Source: Arthrobacter sp. NEB 688 (GTDB lineage: Bacteria; Actinomycetota; Actinomycetes; Actinomycetales; Dermatophilaceae). From it: a stretch of DNA of 64,000 nucleotides. Numbering within the stretch: position 1 is the first letter of the stretch; each line of letters starts with the position of its first letter. Under the pieces are notes generated by a model. That model had not been told where the DNA came from and made no database searches. It saw only the letters and a program-made list of their open reading frames with translations. Location: positions 1,116,001 through 1,180,000 of the forward strand of contig NZ_CP053707.1 in the NCBI RefSeq assembly GCF_013201035.1, given 5' to 3'. Of this stretch, positions 22,111 to 41,069 are shown in pieces. The position numbers were made by a program, and so were the translations under genes.

Positions 22111-22887
22111 CTATGCCCGCGGACCGGGGCGCGGGCGCCCCACCCGCGCGGCGAGCGACGCGGCGGTGCGACGGACGGCGGCGACGAGGCGGTCGCGCTC
22201 GGCCTCGTCGACGTCACCCTGCGGGTAGGTGACCGCGACGGCGGCCACGGGGTAGTCGTTGGCGTCGAGCACGGCGAAGGCCACCGACCCCAGTCCCGGT
22301 GTCACGAGGCCGTCCTCGAGCGCGTACCCGCGCTGGCGCACCTGCTGCAGCCACGAGCGCAGCTGGGTCGTCGACGCCGGCCCGCGCCCGTCGCGCTGCA
22401 CGAGCGCGGTGCGGTCGGGGTAGAGGGCGCGCACCTGGGCGGCCGGCAGGGCCGCGAGCATCGCCTGGCCGGTCGCGGTGAGCGGGGCCGGCAGCCGGAC
22501 TCCGACGTCGGTGACGAGCAGCGGCCGTCCGGGGGCTCGTTGCTCGACGACGTAGAGGACGTCGCCGCCGTGCAGCACCGCGAGGTGGGCGTTGTGGCCG
22601 CACGCGTCGACGAGGCGGTCCATCGGCCCGCGGGCCATCCGCTCGAGCGGGGCCTGTCGCTGGTAGGCCGACCCGAGCTCGTAGGCGGCCAGGCCGAGCC
22701 CGTAGCGGCGCTCGTCGGGCAGGTGGCGGACGTAGCCGCGCTCGGTGAGGACGGCGAGCAGGTGGTAGACGCTCGAGCGGGGCAGCCCGAGGTCGCGGGC
22801 GATGGCGGCGGCGGGCACCGGCTCGCCGCGGCGCGCGATGAGGCCGAGGACGTCGAGGGCGTGGCCGGCCGCCGGGGCGTTCGCCAT
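22111..22887 (-). CDS. IclR-family transcriptional regulator
   Basis: Regulator of 258 aa. The N-terminal helix-turn-helix is HALDVLGLIARRGEPVPAAAIARDLGLPRSSVYHLLAVLTERGYV, and the C-terminal effector domain includes LTATGQAMLAALP and GSVAFAVLDANDYPVAAVAVTYP. IclR proteins sense small metabolites. CAGACT (22899-22894) ends 6 nt before the ATG. It precedes the quinone oxidoreductase on the same strand and follows a two-component system, but no target can be assigned. Confidence 0.9.
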   Translation of the reverse strand: MANAPAAGHALDVLGLIARRGEPVPAAAIARDLGLPRSSVYHLLAVLTERGYVRHLPDERRYGLGLAAYELGSAYQRQAPLERMARGPMDRLVDACGHNAHLAVLHGGDVLYVVEQRAPGRPLLVTDVGVRLPAPLTATGQAMLAALPAAQVRALYPDRTALVQRDGRGPASTTQLRSWLQQVRQRGYALEDGLVTPGLGSVAFAVLDANDYPVAAVAVTYPQGDVDEAERDRLVAAVRRTAASLAARVGRPRPGPRA

Positions 22888-22957: not shown

Positions 22958-23638
22958 TCAGCCCGCCCCGGCCCACTCGTAGAGGCGCTCCGGGCGGCCG
23001 GTGGAGCCGTACCGCAGCCGGACGACCGCCTCCGACCGCGACGCGAAGTGCTCGAGGTAGCGACGGGCGCTGACCCGCGAGACGCCGATGACCTCCGCGA
23101 CGTCCGACGCCGACAGCGGCGTGGACGCCTCGCGCAGGGCGCCCTGGACGAGCCGGGCGGTCTCGGGGCTCAGGCCCTTGGGCAGCCCCGACGGCCCGCT
23201 GCGGGAGGCGTTGCGCGACAGCGCCCGGTCGATGTCCGACTGGTCGGTGACCTCGGCCCGGGCGAGCGCGGCGCGCTGGGCCTCGTAGCGACGCAGGCGG
23301 TCCTCGAGGTCGGCGAACCCGAACGGCTTGAGGAGGTAGTCGGCGACGCCGAGGCGGATGGCGGCGCGCACCGCGTCGCTCTCCTTGGCCGCGGTGATGA
23401 CGATGGCGTCGCACGGGTGCTCGCCGGTGTGGACGTCGGCCAGCAGGTCGAGGCCGAAGCGGTCGGGCAGGTAGAGGTCGAGCAGGAGCAGGTCGGGCGC
23501 GAGCTCCTCGACCGCGGCGAGGGCCTCGGCACCGGAGTGCGCGACACCGACCACCTCGAACCCCGTGACGCGCTGCACGAAGCCGACGTGGATGCGCGCC
23601 ACCATGAAGTCGTCGTCGACGACGAGGACCCGGATCAC
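22958..23638 (-). CDS. Response regulator, CitB/DcuR type
   Basis: Two-component regulator of 226 aa. The receiver domain has the acidic pair VVDDDF, the phospho-acceptor Asp in LLLLDLYLP and Lys in YLLKPFG. The output domain at about residues 165-215 is a helix-turn-helix with LSASDVAEVIGVSRVSARRYLEHF, as in CitB/DcuR/DctR. Its GTG start overlaps the stop of the kinase gene (GTGA). The paired kinase and the divergent tctCBA operon point to control of tricarboxylate uptake. Confidence 0.92.
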   Translation of the reverse strand: MIRVLVVDDDFMVARIHVGFVQRVTGFEVVGVAHSGAEALAAVEELAPDLLLLDLYLPDRFGLDLLADVHTGEHPCDAIVITAAKESDAVRAAIRLGVADYLLKPFGFADLEDRLRRYEAQRAALARAEVTDQSDIDRALSRNASRSGPSGLPKGLSPETARLVQGALREASTPLSASDVAEVIGVSRVSARRYLEHFASRSEAVVRLRYGSTGRPERLYEWAGAG

Positions 23639-25392
23639 GGCCGGACCTCCTGCGGCGCACCGGCATCCGTGGTGCTCGAGGCGTCGGCCCCCTCGGTCTC
23701 GTCGGCCTCCGGTGGGTCGACGAAGGTCGTGACCCCCAGGCGGGCCGTGAAGCGCGTCGTGCCGTCGACCCGCTCGACGTCGATCTCGCCGCCGCGCCGC
23801 CGGCAGACCAGCCGGGTCAGGGCGAGCCCGACGCCGTGCTCCATCGGGTCGACGCGCTTGGTCGTCACGCCGTGCTCGAACAGGGTGGCGCGCAGGTCGT
23901 CCGGCACGCCCGGGCCGGAGTCGTCGACGACGATCTCGACCGTGCTCGCGTCCTGGCGGATGCGCACTCGCACGGACGGCGGTGTCGCAGAACCCCTCGG
24001 CGCGTGCTCGAAGGCGTTGTCGACGAGGTTGCCGAGCACCGTCGCCACGTCGGCGGCGTCGTGCGCCTCGAGCCGCTCCAGGCGCGAGTCGTCGGCGATC
24101 GTCAGGTCGATGTGCCGCTCGTTGGCCGTCGCCGCCTTGGCCATGAGCAGCGCGGCGATCGTGGGGTCGCCGACGAGCGTCGTGACGACGAGGTCGAGGG
24201 CGGTGCGCTGCTCGCTGAGGGCGTCGACGTAGCGGACGACCTCGTCGAGCTCGCCGATCTGGATGAGGCCGCTGATCGTGTGCAGCTGGTTGGCGAACTC
24301 GTGTGCCTGCGAACGCAGCACGTGCGCGGTCGAGCGGAACGACCCGATCTCGCGCTCGAGGTCGGCCATCTCGGTGCGGTCGCGCATCGTCGTCACCGTG
24401 CCCAGCACGCGGTCGCCGCTGACCACCCGCATCGTGCTCATGACGAGCACCCTCCCACGCCGGATGACGACCTCGTCGCGCGCGGCTGTCACGACGTCGT
24501 CCGGGGCGACGCCGGCGCCCTCGCGGGGGTTCTCGCCGACGAGCACCTCCCGCAGGCGCCCCTCGATGCGCAGGTCCGCGACCGACGTGCCGACCGCGTG
24601 CTCGGGCAGGTCGAGCAGCCGGCGGGCGACCTCGTTGACGAGCGTGATGCGGTGCTGCGGGTCGAGGGCGATGACCCCCTCGGCGATGCCCCGGAGCATC
24701 GCCTCGCGGTGCTCGGCGAGGCCGGCGATCTCGCGCGGCTCCATCCCCCGGGTCTGGCGCTTGATGCGACGGGACAGCAGCCACGACCCGCCGAGGCCGA
24801 CGACGAGCGCGATCCCGAGGTAGGTCAGCAGGTAGGACGACGTGCCCTGCAACCGTTCCCACGTCGTCGGCGCCTCCTCGGCGACCATGACGGTGCCGAG
24901 CAGCTCGCCGGCGCGGGTCGGGGTGGCGGGGTCCTTGTCGTCGTCGTCGCCGCCGAGGACGGGGACCTGCGAGGCGAGGTAGTCGCGGCCGTCGACGGTC
25001 AGCGTCCCCGACCAGCTGCCGCCCCGCGCCACCCGCGGGTCGCCGAGGGGGAGCCGCCGCTCCTCGAGCGAGGGGTCGGTCGAGACGCGGACGTCGAGGT
25101 CGGGCTCGGCGAAGGTCACCGACGTGACGTTCGCCTGGGCGACGGTGCCGAGGGCCAGCGTCGCGAGGCCGGTGCGGCTCTCGGGCTGGTCGAGGTTGGC
25201 GCGCACGAGCGGGTTGGACGCGAGCTGCTCGCCGAGGGCCGACACGCGGCGTCCCTCGGTGCGCTCGAACGTGGCCGCCGACTGCGCGAGCGAGACCGCC
25301 GCGACCGCCACGAGGACGACGACGATGATCGCGAGCTGGAGCGCGAAGAGCTGCCCGGCGAGGGTCGCCCGGCGTCGTCGGCGCGTGACCAC
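23635..25392 (-). CDS. Sensor histidine kinase, CitA/DcuS type
   Basis: Membrane sensor of 585 aa. Two helices (about residues 12-34 and 185-205) flank an extracytoplasmic sensor domain of the PAS/Cache kind. A cytosolic PAS domain follows (AMLRGIAEGVIALDPQHRITLVN), then the histidine region RSQAHEFANQLHTISGLIQ and the ATPase with GNLVDNAFEHA and DSGPGVP motifs. This is the layout of carboxylate sensors. The GTG at 25392 is chosen as the first start before the basic leader; GGAGG lies 11 nt upstream. It is divergent from tctC, 100 nt away. Confidence 0.9.
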   Translation of the reverse strand: MVTRRRRRATLAGQLFALQLAIIVVVLVAVAAVSLAQSAATFERTEGRRVSALGEQLASNPLVRANLDQPESRTGLATLALGTVAQANVTSVTFAEPDLDVRVSTDPSLEERRLPLGDPRVARGGSWSGTLTVDGRDYLASQVPVLGGDDDDKDPATPTRAGELLGTVMVAEEAPTTWERLQGTSSYLLTYLGIALVVGLGGSWLLSRRIKRQTRGMEPREIAGLAEHREAMLRGIAEGVIALDPQHRITLVNEVARRLLDLPEHAVGTSVADLRIEGRLREVLVGENPREGAGVAPDDVVTAARDEVVIRRGRVLVMSTMRVVSGDRVLGTVTTMRDRTEMADLEREIGSFRSTAHVLRSQAHEFANQLHTISGLIQIGELDEVVRYVDALSEQRTALDLVVTTLVGDPTIAALLMAKAATANERHIDLTIADDSRLERLEAHDAADVATVLGNLVDNAFEHAPRGSATPPSVRVRIRQDASTVEIVVDDSGPGVPDDLRATLFEHGVTTKRVDPMEHGVGLALTRLVCRRRGGEIDVERVDGTTRFTARLGVTTFVDPPEADETEGADASSTTDAGAPQEVRP

Positions 25393-25492
25393 TATGTACT
25401 CAACCTCCGTTGCGGACGAAAGCGCGACAGGCTCCACACCGGTCGCCCACGATCATCGCGTTCCACTCCACCACAGGAAAGGGATCTCGACG

Positions 25493-26500
25493 ATGAGACT
25501 CCACCGCATCGCGCTCGGCGCGATCGTCGCGGCCACGCTGGCCCTCACCGGCTGCGGAGCCACGAAGGACCAGGGCAGCGGGGGTGCGGCCTCCTCTGCT
25601 GGTGGCGCCCCGGCGACCGGCCTCCAGTACATGGTCCCGAACAGCCCCGGCGGAGGGTACGACACGACCGCCCGCACCGCGGCCCAGGTGATGGAGAAGG
25701 AGAACATCACCGGCAGCGTCCAGGTCTTCAACCTCCCGGGCGCCGGCGGCACCGTCGGCCTCCAGCGGATCGTCAACGAGAAGGGCAACGGCAAGCTCGC
25801 CATGCAGATGGGCCTCGGCGTCGTCGGCGCCGCGTACACCCAGAAGTCGCAGGCCAAGCTGTCGGAGACCACCCCGATCGCCAAGCTCATCGAGGAGGCC
25901 GGCGCGATCGTCGTGCCCAAGGACTCCCCGTACCAGGACATCACCTCGCTCGTCGCGGCGTGGAAGGCGGACCCGAAGTCCCTCGCCGTCGGCGGCGGCT
26001 CCTCGCCGGGCGGCCCGGACCACCTCCTGCCGATGCAGCTCGCCCAGGCGGCCGGCATCGACCCGAAGACCGTCAGCTACGTCAGCTACGACGGCGGCGG
26101 CGAGCTCCTCCCCGCGATCCTCGGCAAGAAGATCGCCTTCGGCGCCAGCGGCTTCGGCGAGTTCCTCGACCAGGTCGAGGCCGGCGACGTCAAGATCCTC
26201 GCGGTGACCAGCGCCGAGCGCGTCGCGGCCCTCCCGGACGTGCCGACGCTCAAGGAGTCCGGCATCGACCTCGAGTTCACCAACTGGCGCGGCGTCGTCG
26301 CCCCTCCCGGCCTCTCCGACGCCGACAAGGCCGTCTGGGTCGACGCCTTCACGAAGATGCACGCCTCGGCCGGCTGGAAGGCCGAGCTCGAGAAGCGCGG
26401 CTGGGTCGACGCCTTCGAGACCGGCGACGAGTTCGGGGCCTTCCTCACGGCCCAGGACGCCGAGGTCGCGAAGCTCCTCCAGACGCTCGGCCTGGCCTGA
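25493..26500 (+). CDS. tctC: Tripartite tricarboxylate transporter binding lipoprotein
   Basis: Extracytoplasmic substrate-binding protein of 335 aa. A lipoprotein signal peptide ends in LALTGC with Cys21 as lipidation site. The mature domain has [18 protein letters not shown] and [14 protein letters not shown], the characteristic Bug/TctC ligand loops, and ends with [20 protein letters not shown]. The ligand is probably citrate or another carboxylate. AGGAAAGG (25475-25482) precedes the ATG. It leads an operon with tctB, tctA, a UspA protein and RraA, divergent from the CitA/CitB-type system. Confidence 0.93.
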
Positions 26501-32248: not shown

Positions 32249-32264
32249 GTCTCGGGTGCGAGAC
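32249..32264. promoter_or_regulatory. hut-type inverted repeat upstream of hutH
   Basis: GTCTCGGGTGCGAGAC, a perfect 6-nt-arm inverted repeat and one of three GTCT-N8-AGAC sites in the histidine-use region. The last base is exactly 45 nt before the C of CAATGGG, which overlaps the likely -10 (TCCAAT, 32307-32312) of hutH. Confidence 0.7.
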
Positions 32265-32319
32265 AGGATGGCCCCCCGCGTGGTGGCCGGCAGCGCGCGC
32301 CGGCCCTCCAATGGGAGGC

Positions 32320-33885
32320 ATGACCGCCACCTCCGCCGTCCTGCCCGAGCACGTCGTCGTCGGCGCCGGCCCGCTGACGATCGAGCAGGTCGTCGCCGTC
32401 GCGCGGCACGGCGCCCGGGTCGTCCTCGACGACGCCGCCGTGGCCGAGGTGCGCCGCACCCGCGGGATCATCCGCGACCTCGCCGACGACACCGTGCCGC
32501 ACTACGGCATCTCGACCGGGTTCGGCGCGCTCGCGACGCGGCACATCCCCGTCGACCTACGACACCGGTTGCAGCGCAGCCTGATCCGCAGCCACGCGGC
32601 GGGCTCCGGCCCCGAGGTCGAGCGCGAGGTCGTCCGCGCCCTCATGCTCCTGCGCGTCGCGACCCTGGCCACCGGGCGCACCGGCATCCGCGAGGAGACG
32701 CTGCGCACCTACGCCGGGATGCTCGACGCCGGCATCACCCCGGTCGTCCACGAGTACGGCTCGCTCGGCTGCTCGGGCGACCTCGCGCCGCTGTCGCACT
32801 GCGCGCTCGCGCTCATGGGGGAGGGCGAGGTGCGCGACGCCGCCGGGGAGCGGATGCCGGCCGCCGACGCGCTCGCCGCCGCCGGGCTCACCCCCGTCGA
32901 GCTCGAGGAGAAGGAGGGGCTCGCGCTCGTCAACGGCACCGACGGGATGCTCGGGATGCTCTGCCTCGCGCTGCACGACCTGCGCGGGCTGCTCGTCGTC
33001 GCCGACGTCGCCGCGGCCATGTCGGTCGAGGGGCTGCTCGGCACCGACGACGTCTTCACCGCCGACCTCCACGCGCTGCGACCGCAGCCGGGCCAGGCCG
33101 TGTCGGCGGCGAACATCCGGAAGGTCATGGCGCACAGCCCGATCCGCGAGTCGCACCGCACCGAGGAGTGCACGCGCGTCCAGGACGCGTACTCGCTGCG
33201 GTGCGCGCCGCAGGTCGCCGGCGGCGCCCGCGACACGCTCGACCACGCCGCCCGCGTCGCCGGGTGGGAGCTCGCGTCCGCGGTCGACAACCCGGTGGTC
33301 ACCCCGGACGGCCGGGTCGAGTCCAACGGCAACTTCCACGGGGCGCCCGTCGCCTACGTCCTCGACTTCCTCGCGATCGTCGCGGCCGACGTCGCCTCGA
33401 TGTCCGAGCGGCGCACCGACCGGTTCCTCGACGTCTCGCGCAGCAACGGCCTGCCGCCCTTCCTCGCCGACGACCCCGGCGTCGACAGCGGCCACATGAT
33501 CGCGCAGTACACCCAGGCGGCCATCGTCTCGGAGATGAAGCGGCTCGCGGCGCCGGCTTCGGTCGACTCCATCCCGTCCTCGGCGATGCAGGAGGACCAC
33601 GTGTCGATGGGCTGGTCCGGGGCGCGCAAGCTGCGGCGGTCGGTCGACGGCCTCGCGCGGGTGCTGGCCGTCGAGGTGCTGACGGCGGCGCGCGGTCTTC
33701 AGCTGCGCGCGCCGCTGCAGCCGGCGCCCGCCAGCGGTGCGGTGGTCGGGGCGCTCGTCGCGGCCGGGGCGTCGGCGCCCGGACCCGACCGCTTCCTCGC
33801 GCCCGAGGTCGAGGTCGCGCACGGGCTCGTCGTCGACGGCACCGTCCGCCGCGTCGTCGAGGCGGTCACCGGCCCCCTCGCCTGA
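32320..33885 (+). CDS. hutH: Histidine ammonia-lyase
   Basis: Converts histidine to urocanate and ammonia, the first step of histidine breakdown; cytosolic tetramer of 521 aa, normal length. HYGISTGFGALA holds the catalytic Tyr, and GSLGCSGDLAPLSH is the cofactor loop. Here the MIO-forming triad is Cys-Ser-Gly instead of the usual Ala-Ser-Gly; the essential Ser is kept. AVDNPVV and SNGNFHG are further family marks. ATG 32320 lies 7 nt after TCCAAT, so it is probably leaderless; an in-frame ATG at 32311 would fall inside that box. Controlled with hutU and the hutF operon by shared sites. Confidence 0.95.
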   Translation: MTATSAVLPEHVVVGAGPLTIEQVVAVARHGARVVLDDAAVAEVRRTRGIIRDLADDTVPHYGISTGFGALATRHIPVDLRHRLQRSLIRSHAAGSGPEVEREVVRALMLLRVATLATGRTGIREETLRTYAGMLDAGITPVVHEYGSLGCSGDLAPLSHCALALMGEGEVRDAAGERMPAADALAAAGLTPVELEEKEGLALVNGTDGMLGMLCLALHDLRGLLVVADVAAAMSVEGLLGTDDVFTADLHALRPQPGQAVSAANIRKVMAHSPIRESHRTEECTRVQDAYSLRCAPQVAGGARDTLDHAARVAGWELASAVDNPVVTPDGRVESNGNFHGAPVAYVLDFLAIVAADVASMSERRTDRFLDVSRSNGLPPFLADDPGVDSGHMIAQYTQAAIVSEMKRLAAPASVDSIPSSAMQEDHVSMGWSGARKLRRSVDGLARVLAVEVLTAARGLQLRAPLQPAPASGAVVGALVAAGASAPGPDRFLAPEVEVAHGLVVDGTVRRVVEAVTGPLA

Positions 33886-33920
33886 CCCGCACCCCATCCC
33901 CGCACGACCCCTCCCTCACC

Positions 33921-33972
33921 GCGAACGTGTGTGAACTCGCCGGTGATCCCCGGCGAGTTCACACACGTTCGC
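33921..33972. terminator. CGAACGTGTGTG hairpin, copy 1
   Basis: Perfect 22-nt arms (33921-33942, 33951-33972) starting GCGAACGTGTGTGAACTCG, with an 8-nt loop. It lies 35 nt after the hutH stop and 20 nt from the end of the convergent methyltransferase gene. The same outer arm recurs at 49761 and 50994 and, slightly changed, at 53549. Confidence 0.85.
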
Positions 33973-33992
33973 GGGAGGACGCGGGGGATGGG

Positions 33993-34676
33993 TCAGCAGG
34001 TGCGGGTGGCGCGGACGACGAGGTCGTCGTGGTGGTGCGCGCCCGACCCGCCGCTGATGCTCCGGGCCCGGCGCTCCGGCCCGACGACGTCCCAGCCGTC
34101 GCCGAGCGCCGAGGCGACCCCCGCCGGCGAGAGGAGCAGGTCGGGGTCGAAGCCGTGCTCGAGCGCCCGCTCGCGGTCGACGTCGGCGTGGTGGACGAAG
34201 ACCATCGTCCCGCCGGGCGCGACGAGCGAGGCCAGCCGCTCGACCGGCGCGGTCTCGAGGTCGAGCGCCGGGTAGAACACCGACACGAGGTCGAACCCGC
34301 CCACGGGCAGGTCGGCCTCGACGAGCCCGGCGTGCACCCACTCGACCGACACCCGCGACGCCTCGGCGGCCGCCCGCGCGCGACCCAGGGCCACGCCGGA
34401 CGGGTCGAGCGCCGTCACCGACCATCCCCGCGTCGCGAGCCACACCGCGTCGGCGCCCTCGCCGCAGCCGACGTCGAGCGCGCGGCCGGGGGCCAGCGTC
34501 GCGGCCTCGACGGTCAGCGCGTGGTTCGGTTCCCCGCTCCACACGCGGTCGAGCTCGGCGTAGCGGGCGTCCCAGACCGACTCGTCGTCGCGCAGCGCGT
34601 ACCCGTGCGCGGGGTCCGGCCCGTCAGCGTCGTGCGGCTCGGGCCTGCCGGGATGCTGCGCCTCGTGCGTCGTCAT
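33993..34676 (-). CDS. Class I SAM-dependent methyltransferase
   Basis: Cytosolic protein of 227 aa. LAPGRALDVGCGEGADAVWLATRGWSVTALDPSGVAL is motif I and the acidic post-I loop of a Rossmann methyltransferase; GGFDLVSVFYPAL and LVAPGGTMVFVHH are motifs II and III. The target is unknown. The set resembles TehB/thiopurine-like small-molecule methyltransferases. The ATG at 34676 is chosen because CACACT ends 6 nt upstream on the minus strand; the upstream in-frame extension is Arg-rich. It sits inside the hut region on the opposite strand, so a link to histidine use is unproven. Confidence 0.85.
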   Translation of the reverse strand: MTTHEAQHPGRPEPHDADGPDPAHGYALRDDESVWDARYAELDRVWSGEPNHALTVEAATLAPGRALDVGCGEGADAVWLATRGWSVTALDPSGVALGRARAAAEASRVSVEWVHAGLVEADLPVGGFDLVSVFYPALDLETAPVERLASLVAPGGTMVFVHHADVDRERALEHGFDPDLLLSPAGVASALGDGWDVVGPERRARSISGGSGAHHHDDLVVRATRTC

Positions 34677-34750
34677 GCCCCGAGTGTGCTCCGGGAGGTG
34701 GTCCCGCGTGGGCATCCCGTTGCCGTTCCGGCAAGCGGCCCGACCGCCGC

Positions 34751-34806
34751 GAGGGGAGGGAACACGCCGGCGCGCGAGCCGGATGCTCTGCGTGTTCCCT
34801 CCTCTC
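34751..34806. repeat. Hairpin in the divergent methyltransferase-hutU gap
   Basis: Arms GAGGGGAGGGAACACGC (34751-34767) and its complement at 34790-34806 pair over 17 nt with one mismatch. It lies upstream of both flanking genes, so it is not a terminator for either of their 3' ends. Confidence 0.7.
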
Positions 34807-34828
34807 GACGCGGAGCCGCCGCCCGCAC

Positions 34829-34844
34829 GTCTCGCATGCCAGAC
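34829..34844. promoter_or_regulatory. hut-type inverted repeat upstream of hutU
   Basis: GTCTCGCATGCCAGAC, the second GTCT-N8-AGAC site. Its last base is exactly 45 nt before the C of CAGTGGG (34889), matching the geometry at hutH and the hutF operon. It could also affect the divergent methyltransferase. Confidence 0.7.
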
Positions 34845-34920
34845 GCCACCGGCCCTCGCCGCCTCCCGCTCGCGCCACAGCACCGCGACAGTGGGATGAC
34901 TGCGACGAAGGAGACCCGAG

Positions 34921-36576
<1,656 letters not shown>

Positions 36577-36590
36577 GCCCCCGATGCCCA

Positions 36591-36657
36591 CTGATTGCGA
36601 GTTCCGCCGCCGACACGCCGGGCGAACGGCGCGCCGAGCGGCGGAACTCGCAATCAG
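36591..36657. terminator. Perfect 20-bp hairpin between hutU and ybaK-like gene
   Basis: Arms at 36591-36610 and 36638-36657 (CTGATTGCGAGTTCCGCCGC and complement) pair perfectly over 20 nt. It is 14 nt after the hutU stop and 19 nt from the convergent gene's end, so it suits bidirectional termination. Confidence 0.85.
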
Positions 36658-36676
36658 TCGGGTGGGGGCGCGGGGG

Positions 36677-37156
36677 TCAGCGGGGGGTGACGGGGTCGGT
36701 GACGTCCGCGACGTCGGCGTCGAGGACCGCGACGAGCGCGTCGGCCCCGACGGTGGCGGCCACGCCGTGCGCGCCGGCGCCGATCGAGACCGTCCGGCCG
36801 GTCAGCGTCGCGTCGGCGACGACGGGCAGCCGGCGCAGCGCCCCGAACGGCGTGATGGTGCCGCGCTCGTAGCCGGTGACGTCGCGCGCCACGTCGGCGG
36901 GCGGCATCGAGAGCCGGTTGACCCCGAGGTGCGCCCGCAGCTTGGGCCACGAGATCTCGCGGTCGCCGGGGACGAGCACGAAGAGGTGGTCGTCGTCGCC
37001 GCGGCGCACGACGAGCGTCTTGACGATGCCCGACGGCTCGACCCCGCGCAGCCGGGCCGCCTCCTCGAGCGAGCCGACCCGGCCGTGGCTCGTGATGTCG
37101 TACGCCATGCCCGACTCGGCGAGGGCGGCGCGTGCGCGGTCGGCTCCGTCATCCAT
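36677..37156 (-). CDS. YbaK/EbsC-family aminoacyl-tRNA deacylase
   Basis: Protein of 159 aa, single YbaK/ProX editing domain. VKTLVVRRGDDDHLFVLVPGDREISWPKLRAHLG holds the conserved Lys and the LVPGDR region, and GYERGTITPFG is the substrate-loop motif. Family members hydrolyse mischarged aminoacyl-tRNA such as Cys-tRNA(Pro). TACGCT (37168-37163) ends 6 nt before the ATG (leaderless). It is convergent with hutU and divergent from the amidohydrolase operon. Confidence 0.9.
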   Translation of the reverse strand: MDDGADRARAALAESGMAYDITSHGRVGSLEEAARLRGVEPSGIVKTLVVRRGDDDHLFVLVPGDREISWPKLRAHLGVNRLSMPPADVARDVTGYERGTITPFGALRRLPVVADATLTGRTVSIGAGAHGVAATVGADALVAVLDADVADVTDPVTPR

Positions 37157-37190
37157 CCGCCCAGCGTAGGACCGGTGACGGGGCGGGCTC

Positions 37191-37206
37191 GTCTCGGACC
37201 CAAGAC
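37191..37206. promoter_or_regulatory. hut-type inverted repeat upstream of the amidohydrolase-hutF-hutI operon
   Basis: GTCTCGGACCCAAGAC, the third GTCT-N8-AGAC site. Its last base is exactly 45 nt before the C of CAATGGG at 37251, which overlaps the likely -10 TGCAAT (37249-37254). Confidence 0.7.
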
Positions 37207-37261
37207 AATCGGCGTGCACCTCCGCCACCACACCCCGTGCCGAGTTGGTGCAATGGGGTCC

Positions 37262-38506
37262 ATGTCCAACAGGTCGGCATCTCCGGGGGGAACCCTCGCC
37301 TTCCGCCGGATGTGGGCCGACCTCGAGACCGTGGGGCTGGACGCCGACTCCGGTGGGTACCGGCGCTTCGCGTGGACCCGCACCGACCACGACCTGCGGG
37401 AGTGGTTCGCCGGGGAGGCCCAGGCGCGCGGGCTCGACCTGACGACCGACCGGATGGGCAACCAGTGGGCCTGGTGGGGCGACCCCGACGCCGCCGTCGC
37501 CGCCGGCACCCCCGGGCTCGTCATCGGCTCGCACCTCGACTCCGTGCCCGACGGTGGCGCGTTCGACGGCCCGCTCGGCGTCGTCAGCGCGCTCGCGGCG
37601 CTCGACGAGGTCCGCGCGAGCGGCCTCGCGCCCGCCCGGCCCGTCGGGGTCGTCAACTTCGCCGACGAGGAGGGCGCCCGGTTCGGGGTCGCCTGCGCCG
37701 GCTCCCGCGTCATCACCGGCGCGATGTCGCCCGACCGCGCCCGCGGCCTCAAGGACGCCGACGGCCTGACGATGGCCGAGGCGATGCACGCCGCCGGCCG
37801 CGACCCCCAGTGGCTCGGGCGCGACGACGAGACGCTGGCCCGGGTCGGCACCTTCGTCGAGCTGCACGTCGAGCAGGGCCTGGCCCTGGACCACCTCGGC
37901 CACGCGGTGGGGGTCGGCAGCGACATCTGGCCGCACGGCCGCTGGCGCATCGACGTCCCCGGCGAGGCCAACCACGCCGGCACCACCGCCCTCGACGAGC
38001 GCGAGGACGCGATGCTCGGCCTCGCCGCCGCCATCATCTCCGCCCGCCGCGCGGCCGAGGAGCACGCCTGCGTCGCGACCGTCGGCAAGGTCGAGGTCGT
38101 CCCCGGGGGCGTCAACGCCATCGCCAGCTGCGCCACCGCCTGGCTCGACGCCCGCGGCACCGACCCCGACGCGGTGCGCCGCGTGGTCGCCGACGTCCGC
38201 GACGTCGTGTCCGACTTCGACGCCCTCGTCACCGAGGAGTCGTGGACGCCGGTCACCGACTTCGACCCGGTGCTGACCCGCCGCATCGCGACCCTCCTCG
38301 GGGGCGTCCCCGTCATCGGGACGGGCGCCGGCCACGACGCCGGGATCCTCGCGAACGCCGGCGTCCCGACGACGATGCTGTTCGTGCGCAACCCGACCGG
38401 CGTCAGCCACAGCCCCGACGAGTGGGCCTCGGCCGACGACTGCCTCAGCGGTGTCGCGGCCCTCGCCGCCGTCGTCACCGACCTCGCCGGGCCGCCTGCT
38501 GCATGA
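37262..38506 (+). CDS. M20-family amidohydrolase (AllC / N-carbamoylase-like), candidate hut deformylase
   Basis: Zinc enzyme of 414 aa. SHLDSVPDGGAFDGPLGV, NFADEEGARF, ELHVEQGLALD, EANHAGTT and GAGHDAG are the metal- and substrate-binding motifs of the allantoate amidohydrolase / N-carbamoyl-L-amino-acid hydrolase branch of M20. It is the first gene of an operon with hutF and hutI (ATGA overlaps). Histidine breakdown through HutF yields N-formylglutamate, which needs a deformylase, and no classical hutG is present. I infer this enzyme may do that step. ATG 37262 is 7 nt after TGCAAT, so it is likely leaderless. Confidence 0.85.
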   Translation: MSNRSASPGGTLAFRRMWADLETVGLDADSGGYRRFAWTRTDHDLREWFAGEAQARGLDLTTDRMGNQWAWWGDPDAAVAAGTPGLVIGSHLDSVPDGGAFDGPLGVVSALAALDEVRASGLAPARPVGVVNFADEEGARFGVACAGSRVITGAMSPDRARGLKDADGLTMAEAMHAAGRDPQWLGRDDETLARVGTFVELHVEQGLALDHLGHAVGVGSDIWPHGRWRIDVPGEANHAGTTALDEREDAMLGLAAAIISARRAAEEHACVATVGKVEVVPGGVNAIASCATAWLDARGTDPDAVRRVVADVRDVVSDFDALVTEESWTPVTDFDPVLTRRIATLLGGVPVIGTGAGHDAGILANAGVPTTMLFVRNPTGVSHSPDEWASADDCLSGVAALAAVVTDLAGPPAA

Positions 38507-39828
38507 GCACGTTCTGGTGCGAGCACGCGGTGCTCCCCGGGGGCACCCGTCGCCACGTCCGGGTCGCGACCGAGCGCGGGCGCATCCTCGAAGTCCTCGC
38601 CGAGCAGCCGATCCAGCCGGGCGACGTCGTCCTGCGCGGTCTCGTCCTGCCCGGCCTCGCCAACGCCCACAGCCACGCCTTCCACCGCGCGCTGCGCGGG
38701 CGCACCCACGGCGGCGGCGGCAACTTCTGGACCTGGCGCGAGGGGATGTACGCCCTCGCCGGCCGGCTCGACCCCGACTCCTACCGTGCTCTCGCGACGG
38801 CGGTGTTCGCCGAGATGGTCCTCGCCGGGTACACGGCCGTCGGGGAGTTCCACTACCTCCACCACGCACCGGGCGGCACGCCGTACGACGACCCCAACGC
38901 GATGGGCCTGGCGCTCGTCGACGCGGCGCGGGCGGCGGGCGTCCGGCTGACCCTCCTCGACACGGTCTACCTCTCCGGCGGGCTGACCGGCTCGGGCCAC
39001 GTGCCCCTCGACCCGGTGCAGCAGCGCTTCTCCGACGGCTCCGCCGAGGGATGGCTCGAGCGGGTCAGCGCCCTGACCGCCGACGAGCACTGGCGCGTCG
39101 GGGCCGCCGTGCACTCGGTGCGGGCCGTGCCGCTCGACGACCTCGCCGTCGTCGGTGACGTCGCGGGGCGGGAGCACTGGCCCCTGCACGCGCACCTGTC
39201 CGAGCAGCCCGGCGAGAACCTCGCGTGCGAGTCGTTCTACGGCCGCACGCCGGCCCGCCTCCTCGCCGACGAGGGGCTGCTGACCACCGAGACCTCGCTC
39301 GTCCACGCGACGCACCTGACCGACGACGACATCCGCCTCATCGGCGGCGCCGAGGCCACGGCGGTGTTCTGCCCGACGACCGAGCGCGACCTCGCCGACG
39401 GCATCGGCCCGGCCCGTGCGCTCGCCGACGCCGGGGCGCACCTGGCCGTCGGGTCCGACCAGCACGCGGTCGTCGACCCCTTCGAGGAGGTGCGAGGCGT
39501 CGAGATGCACGAGCGCCTGACGACCCTCGAGCGCGGCCGGTTCGCCCCCCTCGACCTCCTCGCGATGGGCACGCTCGACGGCTACCGCTCGCTCGGCTGG
39601 GCCGACGGCGGCCTCGTCGCGGGCGGTCACGTCGCCGACCTCGTCGCGGTGCGCACCGACAGCCCTCGCACGGCCGGCGCCGCGCTCGACCAGCTCCTCT
39701 ACGCCGCCACCTCGGCCGACGTGACGGACGTCGTCGTCGGGGGCGAGCACGTCGTCAGCGCAGGCGTGCACCGGCTCGGCGACGTGGGCCGCCTGCTCGC
39801 CGAGGCGATCACGGCGGTGCGTCGATGA
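38503..39828 (+). CDS. hutF: Formimidoylglutamate deiminase
   Basis: Amidohydrolase-superfamily zinc enzyme of 441 aa that converts N-formimidoyl-L-glutamate to N-formylglutamate and ammonia. [19 protein letters not shown] carries the first metal His pair, ALHAHLSEQ-like [13 protein letters not shown] the next His, [11 protein letters not shown] another, and [15 protein letters not shown] the catalytic Asp. The [13 protein letters not shown] form is typical of HutF. The start overlaps the preceding stop and its own stop overlaps hutI (ATGA both times). Confidence 0.94.
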
Positions 39829-41069
39829 GTCCGGCTGCGGCGCAGCCCACCTCGGCAGGCACGCACCTCGTCACGGGCATCGGGCAGCTCGTCACCTGCG
39901 CGGGCCCGGACGGCGACCTGCCGGTCGACGACCTCGCGACCCCGGCCGACGAGCGGCTCGGCGTCCTGACCGACGCCGCGCTCGTCGTCGAGGACGGTCG
40001 CGTCGCGTGGGTCGGCCCCGCCGCGCAGGCGCCGGCCGCCGACCACGTCACCGACCTCGGCGGCCGCGCGGTCGTCCCGGGCTTCGTCGACAGCCACAAC
40101 CACCTCGTCCACGCCGGCGACCGCTCGGCGGAGTTCGTCGCCCGGATGGCCGGCACCCCGTACGACGGCGGCGGCATCGGCGTCTCGGTGGCGGCGACCC
40201 GTGCGGCCACCGACGACGAGCTGCGCGCCCTCCTCGCCGCGCGCGTCGCGCAGGCCCGGGCGCTCGGCACGACGACCCTCGAGGTCAAGAGCGGCTACGG
40301 CCTGACCGTCGAGGACGAGGTGCGCGCCCTGCGCCTGGCCGGCGAGGTCACCCCCGAGACCACCTTCCTCGGGGCCCACGTCGTCCCGCCCGAGGCCCGC
40401 GCCGACCGCGCCGGCTACCTCGACCTCGTGACCGGCCCGATGCTCGCCGCCTGCGCCCCGCTCGCCCGGTGGGTCGACGTCTTCTGCGAGCCGAACAGCC
40501 CGCACGCGTTCACCGGCGAGGAGGCCCGCGCCGTCCTCGTGGCCGGGCGCGACGCCGGGCTCGGGCTGCGCGTCCACGGCAACCAGCTCGGCCCCGGGCC
40601 GGGCGTGCGCCTCGCGGTCGAGCTCGGCGCCGCCAGCGTCGACCACTGCACCTTCCTCGACGACGCCGACGTCGCGGCCCTCGCCGACGCGGCCGCCACC
40701 ACCGTCGCGACCCTCCTGCCGGGGGTCGAGTTCTCGACGCGGATGCCCTACCCGGACGCCCGGCGCCTCCTCGACGCCGGCGCCTCCGTGGCCCTGGCCT
40801 CGGACTGCAACCCCGGCACCTGCAACACGGCCTCGATGCCGTTCGTCGTCGCCCTCGCCGTCCGCGAGCTGCGGATGACCGCGGCCGAGACGCTCGTCGC
40901 GGCGACCGTGGGCGGGGCCCGGGCCCTGCGCCGCCCGGACGTCGGGCGCATCGCGGTGGGCGGGCGCGCCGACCTCGCGGTGCTCGACGCACCGGGCCAC
41001 GAGCACCTGGCCTACCGGCCGGGGATGCCCGTGGCCCGCGCGCTCGAGCTCGGGGGAGCCGTCAGCTGA
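39825..41069 (+). CDS. hutI: Imidazolonepropionase
   Basis: Zinc/iron amidohydrolase of 414 aa that opens 4-imidazolone-5-propionate to N-formimidoyl-glutamate. [20 protein letters not shown] is the first metal site, [23 protein letters not shown] and VHGNQLG follow, and [19 protein letters not shown] is the catalytic Asp region typical of HutI. It is the last gene of the operon; its final 8 nt overlap the end of the convergent DUF4235 gene. Confidence 0.95.

What the first reader, a model, noticed from the sequence alone, without database searches (positions are those of the whole stretch)
32249..37254. Three identical-geometry inverted repeats define a hut regulon
GTCT-N8-AGAC sites, all starting GTCTCG, lie before hutH (32249-32264), hutU (34829-34844) and the amidohydrolase-hutF-hutI operon (37191-37206). 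In each case the last base of the site is exactly 45 nt from a CARTGGG element that covers the likely -10 (TCCAAT, GACAGT, TGCAAT). The spacers between share little sequence, so the conserved distance is not simple duplication. This looks like the operator of a dedicated regulator (activator or roadblock repressor) that is not encoded in the window.
Basis: partly seen in the sequence, partly recalled or inferred. Interest (0 to 1): 0.75.

Follow-up and report, generated by a model that had tools for sequence, protein, structure and literature searches.

The report
HutR-controlled histidine-degradation promoters
Three matching DNA sites before the histidine-breakdown genes look like binding sites for a known type of regulator, HutR, whose own gene lies nearby in the window; they sit at a fixed distance from each promoter, as expected for a switch that recruits RNA polymerase.

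Summary
In detail: the window holds exactly three GTCT-N8-AGAC sites, one before each hut transcription unit, each 45 nt from CARTGGG. In the whole genome only these three carry the site-plus--10 arrangement at 0-1 mismatch.

They are best read as operators of HutR, an IclR-family regulator. The published HutR motif of Corynebacterium resistens is GTCTGWWATWCCAGAC (PMC8222616), the same frame. Its ortholog is adjacent to and divergent from hutH in 18 of 40 relatives' loci, 14 with an exact site between. A strong match is present in 43 of 44 hutU-positive and 0 of 14 hutU-negative genomes.

The spacing is conserved at hutH: in 68 of 69 non-redundant promoters with an exact site a start codon lies 55-58 nt past the site, while the distance from the same site to adjacent hutR ranges from 0 to 129 nt. 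The site centre, near -63.5 of a predicted leaderless start, fits class I activation; that is inferred, not shown. New member of a known kind.

The parts
32249..32264 (+). HutR operator of hutH, GTCTCGGGTGCGAGAC
   Evidence: same kind of site upstream of hutH in relatives
32283..32288 (+). weak -35 region of hutH (only the TG stands out among relatives)
   Evidence: TG at offset 20 in 36 of 78 promoters, mean 4.7 per offset
32307..32312 (+). predicted -10 TCCAAT of hutH, starting 43 nt after the site, 7 nt before the ATG
32320..33885 (+). hutH, histidine ammonia-lyase; predicted leaderless mRNA starting at or next to 32320
   Evidence: (TIGR01225 644 bits, cut-off 539)
34829..34844 (+). HutR operator of hutU, GTCTCGCATGCCAGAC
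34887..34892 (+). predicted -10 GACAGT of hutU
   Evidence: GACAGT also at the hutU promoters of L045, L047-L050
34921..36576 (+). hutU, urocanate hydratase
   Evidence: (TIGR01228 899 bits, cut-off 375)
37191..37206 (+). HutR operator of the amidohydrolase-hutF-hutI operon, GTCTCGGACCCAAGAC
37249..37254 (+). predicted -10 TGCAAT of the operon
37262..38506 (+). M20-family amidohydrolase (AllC-like), first gene of the operon; predicted leaderless
   Evidence: NF006770 563 bits, cut-off 372
38503..39828 (+). hutF, formimidoylglutamate deiminase
   Evidence: TIGR02022 440 bits, cut-off 413
39825..41069 (+). hutI, imidazolonepropionase; start overlaps the hutF stop
   Evidence: (TIGR01224 345.5 bits, cut-off 298)
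22111..22887 (-). hutR, IclR-family regulator, 258 aa; ortholog of the IclR gene found beside hut genes in relatives

Best explanation
The three inverted repeats are operators of HutR, an IclR-family regulator encoded in the same window at 22111-22887(-). HutR, in the presence of a pathway signal (histidine or urocanate, not tested), binds each 16-bp site as a dimer. There it sits at about -71 to -56 (centre near -63.5), just upstream of a weak -35 and a non-consensus -10 (T-N-C-A-A-T). From that fixed face of the helix it recruits RNA polymerase, as in class I activation. hutH and the amidohydrolase gene are then transcribed as leaderless mRNAs starting at or beside their ATG, and hutU with a short leader of about 21 nt. 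In many relatives the hutH site also lies just before the divergent hutR gene and would let HutR act on its own promoter. In this genome hutR stands apart and has no exact site within 300 nt upstream. Shown by sequence: sites, spacing, gene identities, conservation, co-occurrence. Inferred: HutR binding here, dimer binding, activation rather than repression, the effector, and the start sites.
For: Motif frame identical to the published HutR motif GTCTGWWATWCCAGAC; L206 has GTCTGAAATACCAGAC, an exact fit to it, upstream of its hutH. IclR gene in the window. Its relatives have hutH within 8 kb in 61 of 80 named loci. In 40 relatives' hut loci, 34 hold the ortholog; 18 have it adjacent to and divergent from hutH, 14 of these with an exact site between. 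Strong HutR match in 43 of 44 hutU-positive and 0 of 14 hutU-negative genomes, own genome included (Fisher 1.5e-12); the one hutU-positive genome without it, G021, also lacks the site before hutH (L062). In the window plus 40 relatives, 25 of 30 CARTGG found within 120 nt of exact sites (both directions read) start at offset 45; 22 of 27 without the window. 92 of 99 hutH genes have a site with at most 1 mismatch. Start codon at offset 55-58 in 68 of 69; other 8-nt windows hold one in 0-24 of 69. In the 38 loci with adjacent hutR, sd 0.8 to hutH against 25.4 to hutR. Random shifts of +-1 nt lower the -10 signal from 4.3 to at most 3.29 bits in 300 draws. hutU has its own exact site in 11 of 12 loci where it stands more than 800 nt from hutH, and in 1 of the other 75 (six of the 12 are the window and five loci of its genus).
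Against: No binding or transcription was measured. Seven of 99 hutH genes lack a site at up to 1 mismatch. In a further set 26 of 32 testable hutH genes have a start codon at 55-58; L189, L190, L211, L214, L215 and L218 do not. Some lineages show GTCC-N8-GGAC instead (L079 before hutR, L186, L191, L203, L207). For the amidohydrolase operon the -10 starts at 42, 43 or 44 (2, 5 and 4 of 11 non-redundant promoters), and for hutU at 43 or 44 in 10 of 17 and nowhere near in 7, so the base-exact figure holds for hutH above all. Of 37 amidohydrolase genes standing more than 150 nt from hutU, 23 lack an exact site. Where hutU leads the cluster the site remains but the -10 is less regular. Fixed spacing could also serve a repressor that contacts RNA polymerase. 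The window's hutU -10 (GACAGT) is a poor -10.
Confidence: 0.82

Rival explanations
1. HutR is bound to the same sites but represses: it holds RNA polymerase in an inactive complex from the fixed upstream position and lets go when histidine or urocanate binds.
For: IclR-family members include repressors, activators and dual regulators (PMC8222616). Fixed spacing only demands contact with RNA polymerase, not its sign.
Against: The site lies upstream of the -35 region (it ends 42 nt before the -10; -35-like TG at offset 20), where it cannot block the polymerase sterically. The -10 boxes and the -35 are weak, as in activator-dependent promoters.
Confidence: 0.13
2. A regulator other than the IclR protein (for example the DpiA-like response regulator at 22958-23650, or one encoded elsewhere) binds the sites.
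For: Two other regulatory genes lie next to hutR (sensor kinase 23635-25437, response regulator 22958-23650).
Against: The IclR gene co-occurs with hutU in 43 of 44 genomes and with none of 14 without hutU. It lies beside the site and hutH in many genomes. Its published relative has this motif. The kinase pair is beside a tripartite tricarboxylate receptor gene and may serve that; its distribution was not tested.
Confidence: 0.03
3. Chance: short palindromes in a 76% G+C sequence that happen to lie before hut genes.
For: Sites alone are only mildly enriched in the window (3 against 0.78 expected, 3 of 100 shuffles reach 3).
Against: The joint arrangement is unique in the genome at 0-1 mismatch and recurs across 78 non-redundant hutH promoters.
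Confidence: 0.01

Closest known systems
HutR (IclR family) of Corynebacterium resistens DSM 45100 (Schroder et al. 2012, cited in PMC8222616; the original was not held)
   Same: IclR-family regulator linked to hut genes; operator GTCT-N8-AGAC, with the central AT of the published motif at positions 8-9 in most relatives (A 70 and T 73 of 78).
   Different: Here the inner positions are mostly GTCTCG...CGAGAC instead of GTCTG...CCAGAC, and only one of the window's three sites has the central AT; hutF-type pathway with three separate transcription units; hutR lies about 9.4 kb from hutH and has no exact site within 300 nt upstream. The C. resistens pathway uses HutG, and all compared corynebacterial clusters contain hutR (passages).
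PcaU/PcaR/PobR group of IclR regulators with GTNCG-N5-6-CGNAC motifs (PMC8222616)
   Same: Same family and the broad motif group in which that paper places HutR; the second-best NCBIfam match of the window protein is pcaR_pcaU (99.8 bits); PcaU is called an activator in a reference title there.
   Different: Score far below that family's cut-off of 284.75 bits; aromatic instead of histidine catabolism; some of these have an additional half-site, which I did not search for here.
HutC (GntR family) repressor of hut genes in Pseudomonas (PMC12977541 and PMC12772324, titles and abstract starts seen in listings)
   Same: Controls hut genes.
   Different: Another protein family; a repressor. Neither its protein nor its operator was sought here.

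Membership tests
HutR, IclR-family regulator of histidine utilisation | IclR_C and HTH_IclR domains over the curated cut-offs | tested here: met
   PF01614 99.1 bits (cut-off 24), PF09339 54.2 bits (cut-off 22)
HutR, IclR-family regulator of histidine utilisation | operator fits GTCT-N8-AGAC (published GTCTGWWATWCCAGAC) | tested here: met
   the 8 outer bases match in 3 of 3 sites; the inner bases differ in part from the published consensus
HutR, IclR-family regulator of histidine utilisation | genetic linkage and co-occurrence with hut genes | tested here: met
   43 of 44 against 0 of 14; 61 of 80 named loci with hutH within 8 kb; ortholog in 34 of 40 hut loci
HutR, IclR-family regulator of histidine utilisation | sequence orthology to the C. 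resistens HutR protein | not tested
   that protein was not among the fetched loci; the scan kept the best 80 of 580 relatives
HutR, IclR-family regulator of histidine utilisation | binds the operator in vitro | not testable with these tools
   needs gel shift or affinity capture
Class I activator promoter | site upstream of -35 at a fixed distance, near -61.5 (recalled figure) | tested here: met
   centre near -63.5 if +1 is the A of ATG (predicted); start codon at 55-58 in 68 of 69 hutH promoters
Class I activator promoter | transcription depends on the bound protein and on the alpha C-terminal domain | not testable with these tools
   needs in vitro transcription
Roadblock (steric) repressor | operator overlaps -35/-10 or lies downstream of the start | tested here: not met
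   the site ends 42 nt before the predicted -10

The most novel reading that the evidence does not exclude
HutR operator, a spacer of free sequence and the -10 form one rigid promoter module, kept in register to within a base or so across many families of Actinomycetota. When the hut cluster breaks up, the new first gene (hutU or the amidohydrolase operon) often gains its own copy of the module at nearly the same spacing with an unrelated spacer, that is, by repeated independent assembly. In Phycicoccus hutR itself has escaped autoregulation.
Probability: 0.45. Interest if true: 0.5.

Novelty: new member of a known kind. Interest (0 to 1): 0.36.

Why it matters
It names the likely regulator, its operator and a three-promoter regulon in a genus for which my searches found no description (open-licence library only). 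The spacing data make activation by an IclR regulator directly testable by simple spacer insertions. They also give a usable search rule (site + 42 nt + TNCAATGG) for histidine catabolism promoters in Actinomycetota. The link between cluster break-up and new operators is a small natural experiment on how regulons are rewired.

Tried and rejected
The other three IclR_C genes of the genome (L011, L013, L014): used as queries beside the window IclR, none was the best match to a hut-linked IclR gene; one distant IclR gene in L076 matched L014 at 30%. Other regulon members: the 7 further exact sites of the genome were inspected and none has TNCARTGG at the offset; what genes they lie in was not looked at. 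Steric roadblock: rejected by position. Recent duplication of one promoter: spacers are at random identity.

Literature: seven searches, listing 20 of 21, 20 of 23, 11 of 11, 10 of 26, 10 of 409, 4 of 4 and 20 of 92 papers. Of PMC8222616 I saw the abstract, passages and part 1 of the Results; of PMC3350403, PMC13273656, PMC9413887 and PMC4681348 passages only; Schroder 2012 was not held, so its evidence on activation was not seen. No listed paper is, by title and abstract start, about HutR in Phycicoccus or other Intrasporangiaceae, or about a fixed HutR spacing; most subscription papers and all supplementary tables were out of reach, so the supplementary regulon tables of PMC8222616 may already hold some of these genomes. 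PMC4681348 names no hutH in its main text. No structure was predicted: it would not decide between activator and repressor.

Limits of the counts. One search aligned 16 of the 35 HutR proteins located. One search found 79 of 246 genomes of the class at E at most 1e-50; 30 came as loci and I fetched 20 of the remaining 49, chosen by me for their families; hut co-occurrence was not tested there. Some species occur in more than one set (for example L051/L091, L059/L107, L065/L102, L070/L108). One search is not freed of these; drop rows whose 42-nt spacer is 75% or more identical to an earlier row. One search uses only hutH hits that start within the first 25 residues, and its sites were picked for at most one mismatch in the 8 outer bases, so conservation of those bases there is by selection; the inner bases and the spacing were not selected. 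In one search the start codon is the in-frame ATG/GTG nearest to offset 56. The HutR threshold (E at most 1e-45) was set by me in the gap between 3.7e-47 (G041, 40% identity) and 7.2e-25; the 800-nt cut was chosen.
Full report
What is there. Each of the three hut transcription units of the window is preceded by GTCT-N8-AGAC: hutH (32249-32264), hutU (34829-34844) and the amidohydrolase-hutF-hutI operon (37191-37206); there are no others in the window. CARTGGG begins exactly 45 nt after the last base of each. Sites alone are a mild excess (0.78 expected; 3 of 100 shuffles reach 3). The combined pattern of site, 42 free bases and TNCARTGG has only these three matches at 0-1 mismatch in 4.08 Mb; two more appear at 2 mismatches, where the reversed control has 4. 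Seven further exact sites in the genome lack TNCARTGG at that offset. Spacers are no more alike than random stretches. Gene identities were checked by Pfam and NCBIfam.

The regulator. The genome has four IclR_C proteins, one of them in the window at 22111-22887(-), with IclR_C and HTH_IclR domains over the cut-offs. I fetched 40 hutU-centred regions of relatives out of 43 hutU-positive relatives; G002, G009 and G012 were not fetched. The ortholog is in 34 of these 40 loci. In 18 it is divergent from hutH and within 500 nt, and in 14 of those an exact site lies between them, for example in L051, L053, L054, L055, L060, L064, L070 and L074. In a scan of named genomes, 61 of the 80 kept loci around the best HutR relatives have hutH within 8 kb and 58 have hutU; some loci are short contigs. 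They include Nocardioides, Streptomyces, Streptacidiphilus, Pseudonocardia and Solirubrobacter; the locus nearest to the window's HutR is from Phycicoccus jejuensis, 98% identical. Across 58 genomes (own plus 57 relatives), a strong HutR match is present in 43 of 44 with hutU and 0 of 14 without (Fisher p 1.5e-12, which ignores relatedness). The exception, G021, also has no site before hutH (L062).

The published motif. PMC8222616 (Table 1, passages seen) gives HutR of Corynebacterium resistens, an IclR regulator of histidine utilisation, the motif GTCTGWWATWCCAGAC. Over 78 non-redundant hutH promoters the sites here read GTCT [CG] [GA] N A T N [CT] [GC] AGAC; the outer bases were selected for, but the inner A8 and T9 were not and stand at 70 and 73 of 78. 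The window's own sites keep AT there only at hutU. A more distant family has GTCTGAAATACCAGAC before hutH (L206), an exact fit to the published consensus. PMC3350403 (passages) reports hutR in all corynebacterial hut clusters it compared.

The spacing. In the window and 40 relatives, 51 exact sites occur in 30 of 41 loci; CARTGG lies within 120 nt (both directions read) 30 times, 25 of them at offset 45 (22 of 27 without the window). Of 99 hutH genes examined, 92 have a site with at most one mismatch within 260 nt and 82 an exact one; 78 remain after removing near-identical spacers. Information peaks at offsets 43 (T), 47 (A) and 48 (T), at offset 20 (T) and at the start codon, besides the bases next to the site (offsets 1 and 4); mean information is 0.70 bits over 43-48 against 0.14 over 5-42. 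A generic -10 weight puts the best -10 at offset 43 in 48 of 78 and at 42-44 in 64 of 78; TG at offset 20 in 36 of 78 looks like a weak -35. Random shifts of one base lower the signal from 4.3 to at most 3.29 bits in 300 draws. In 68 of 69 non-redundant promoters with an exact site an in-frame start codon lies at 55-58; other 8-nt windows hold one in 0-24 of 69, the highest being the adjacent 45-52. In the 38 loci with an adjacent divergent hutR, the distance from the same site to hutR varies from 0 to 129 nt (sd 25.4 against 0.8). The same site thus has a rigid relation to hutH and a loose one to hutR. In a further set of 49 loci (L171-L219, overlapping the earlier sets in part), 32 hutH genes were testable and 26 have a start codon at 55-58. 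In eight of these from one more distant family (L200-L207) it is 8 of 8, with the -10 at 43 in 7, although only 2 of the 8 sites are exact (4 have one mismatch, 2 have two). At the other promoters the register is a little looser: the -10 starts at 42, 43 or 44 in 2, 5 and 4 of 11 non-redundant amidohydrolase promoters, and at 43 or 44 in 7 and 3 of 17 hutU rows, with none near in 7.

Operators follow the break-up of the cluster. Among 87 hutH-hutU pairs, hutU has its own exact site in 1 of 69 where the gap is at most 150 nt and in 11 of 18 where it is larger. With a cut at 800 nt, chosen after seeing the list, the counts are 11 of 12 and 1 of 75. These are not independent: six of the 12 are the window and five loci of its genus, and L065/L102 are one species. 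For the amidohydrolase operon the rule is weaker: 0 of 26 near and 14 of 37 far.

Mechanism. If +1 is the A of the hutH ATG, the site occupies -71 to -56 and the -10 lies at -13 to -8; the same holds for the amidohydrolase gene. A site just upstream of a weak -35 at fixed distance is the layout of class I activation (recalled knowledge). It rules out simple steric block. That HutR activates is inferred; the original C. resistens paper could not be read. In this genome no exact site lies within 300 nt before hutR (the best match has one mismatch and ends 272 nt away, inside the neighbouring response-regulator gene), whereas L050 keeps an exact one 7 nt from hutR. Loss of autoregulation is therefore likely here, also an inference.

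Against. Seven of 99 hutH genes lack the site; some lineages show GTCC-N8-GGAC instead (L079 before hutR, L186, L191, L203, L207). The six misses are L189, L190, L211, L214, L215 and L218. G041 has a weak HutR match (40% identity) and no hutH or exact site in the 20 kb around hutU (L077). Where hutU leads the cluster the site remains but the -10 is less regular.

Verdict. A real and well-conserved regulatory feature, of an already published kind (HutR), with the regulator in the window. What this work adds is the three-promoter regulon of this genome, the fixed architecture and its link to cluster break-up.

Noticed in passing
window 37262-38506: An AllC-like M20 amidohydrolase (NF006770 563 bits, cut-off 372) leads the hutF-hutI operon; it may do the N-formylglutamate deformylase (HutG) step. 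It lies directly before hutF in 32 of 34 loci (window + 40 relatives) and 28 of 30 named loci that hold both. No search for a canonical HutG was made.
   Followed up: partly
window 36677-37156 (-) and 37191-37206: The third operator lies 34 nt from the start of a divergent aminoacyl-tRNA editing (tRNA_edit, PF04073) gene, which could share the control.
   Followed up: no
window 33919-33974, 34735-34822, 36587-36661: Long inverted repeats (arms 28, 33 and 24 nt; 96, 79 and 96% complementary) lie in the gaps around hutH, the methyltransferase gene and hutU, with no T run seen; possibly terminators between genes.
   Followed up: partly
L115, L119, L131, L139: Four Streptacidiphilus loci carry two exact GTCT-N8-AGAC sites 32 nt apart (start to start) between hutR and hutH, unlike the single site here.
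   Followed up: no
L062 (G021): A relative with hutH, hutU, hutI, hutF and the amidohydrolase gene but no strong HutR match and no operator before hutH; its hut genes may be controlled otherwise.
   Followed up: no
L050: Here hutR and hutH are about 2.8 kb apart and each keeps its own exact site, a state between the shared divergent site (L051) and the window, where hutR has none.
   Followed up: partly
window 22958-26500: Between hutR and hutH lie a DpiA-like response regulator, a sensor kinase and a tripartite tricarboxylate receptor gene, which suggests control of tricarboxylate uptake.
   Followed up: partly
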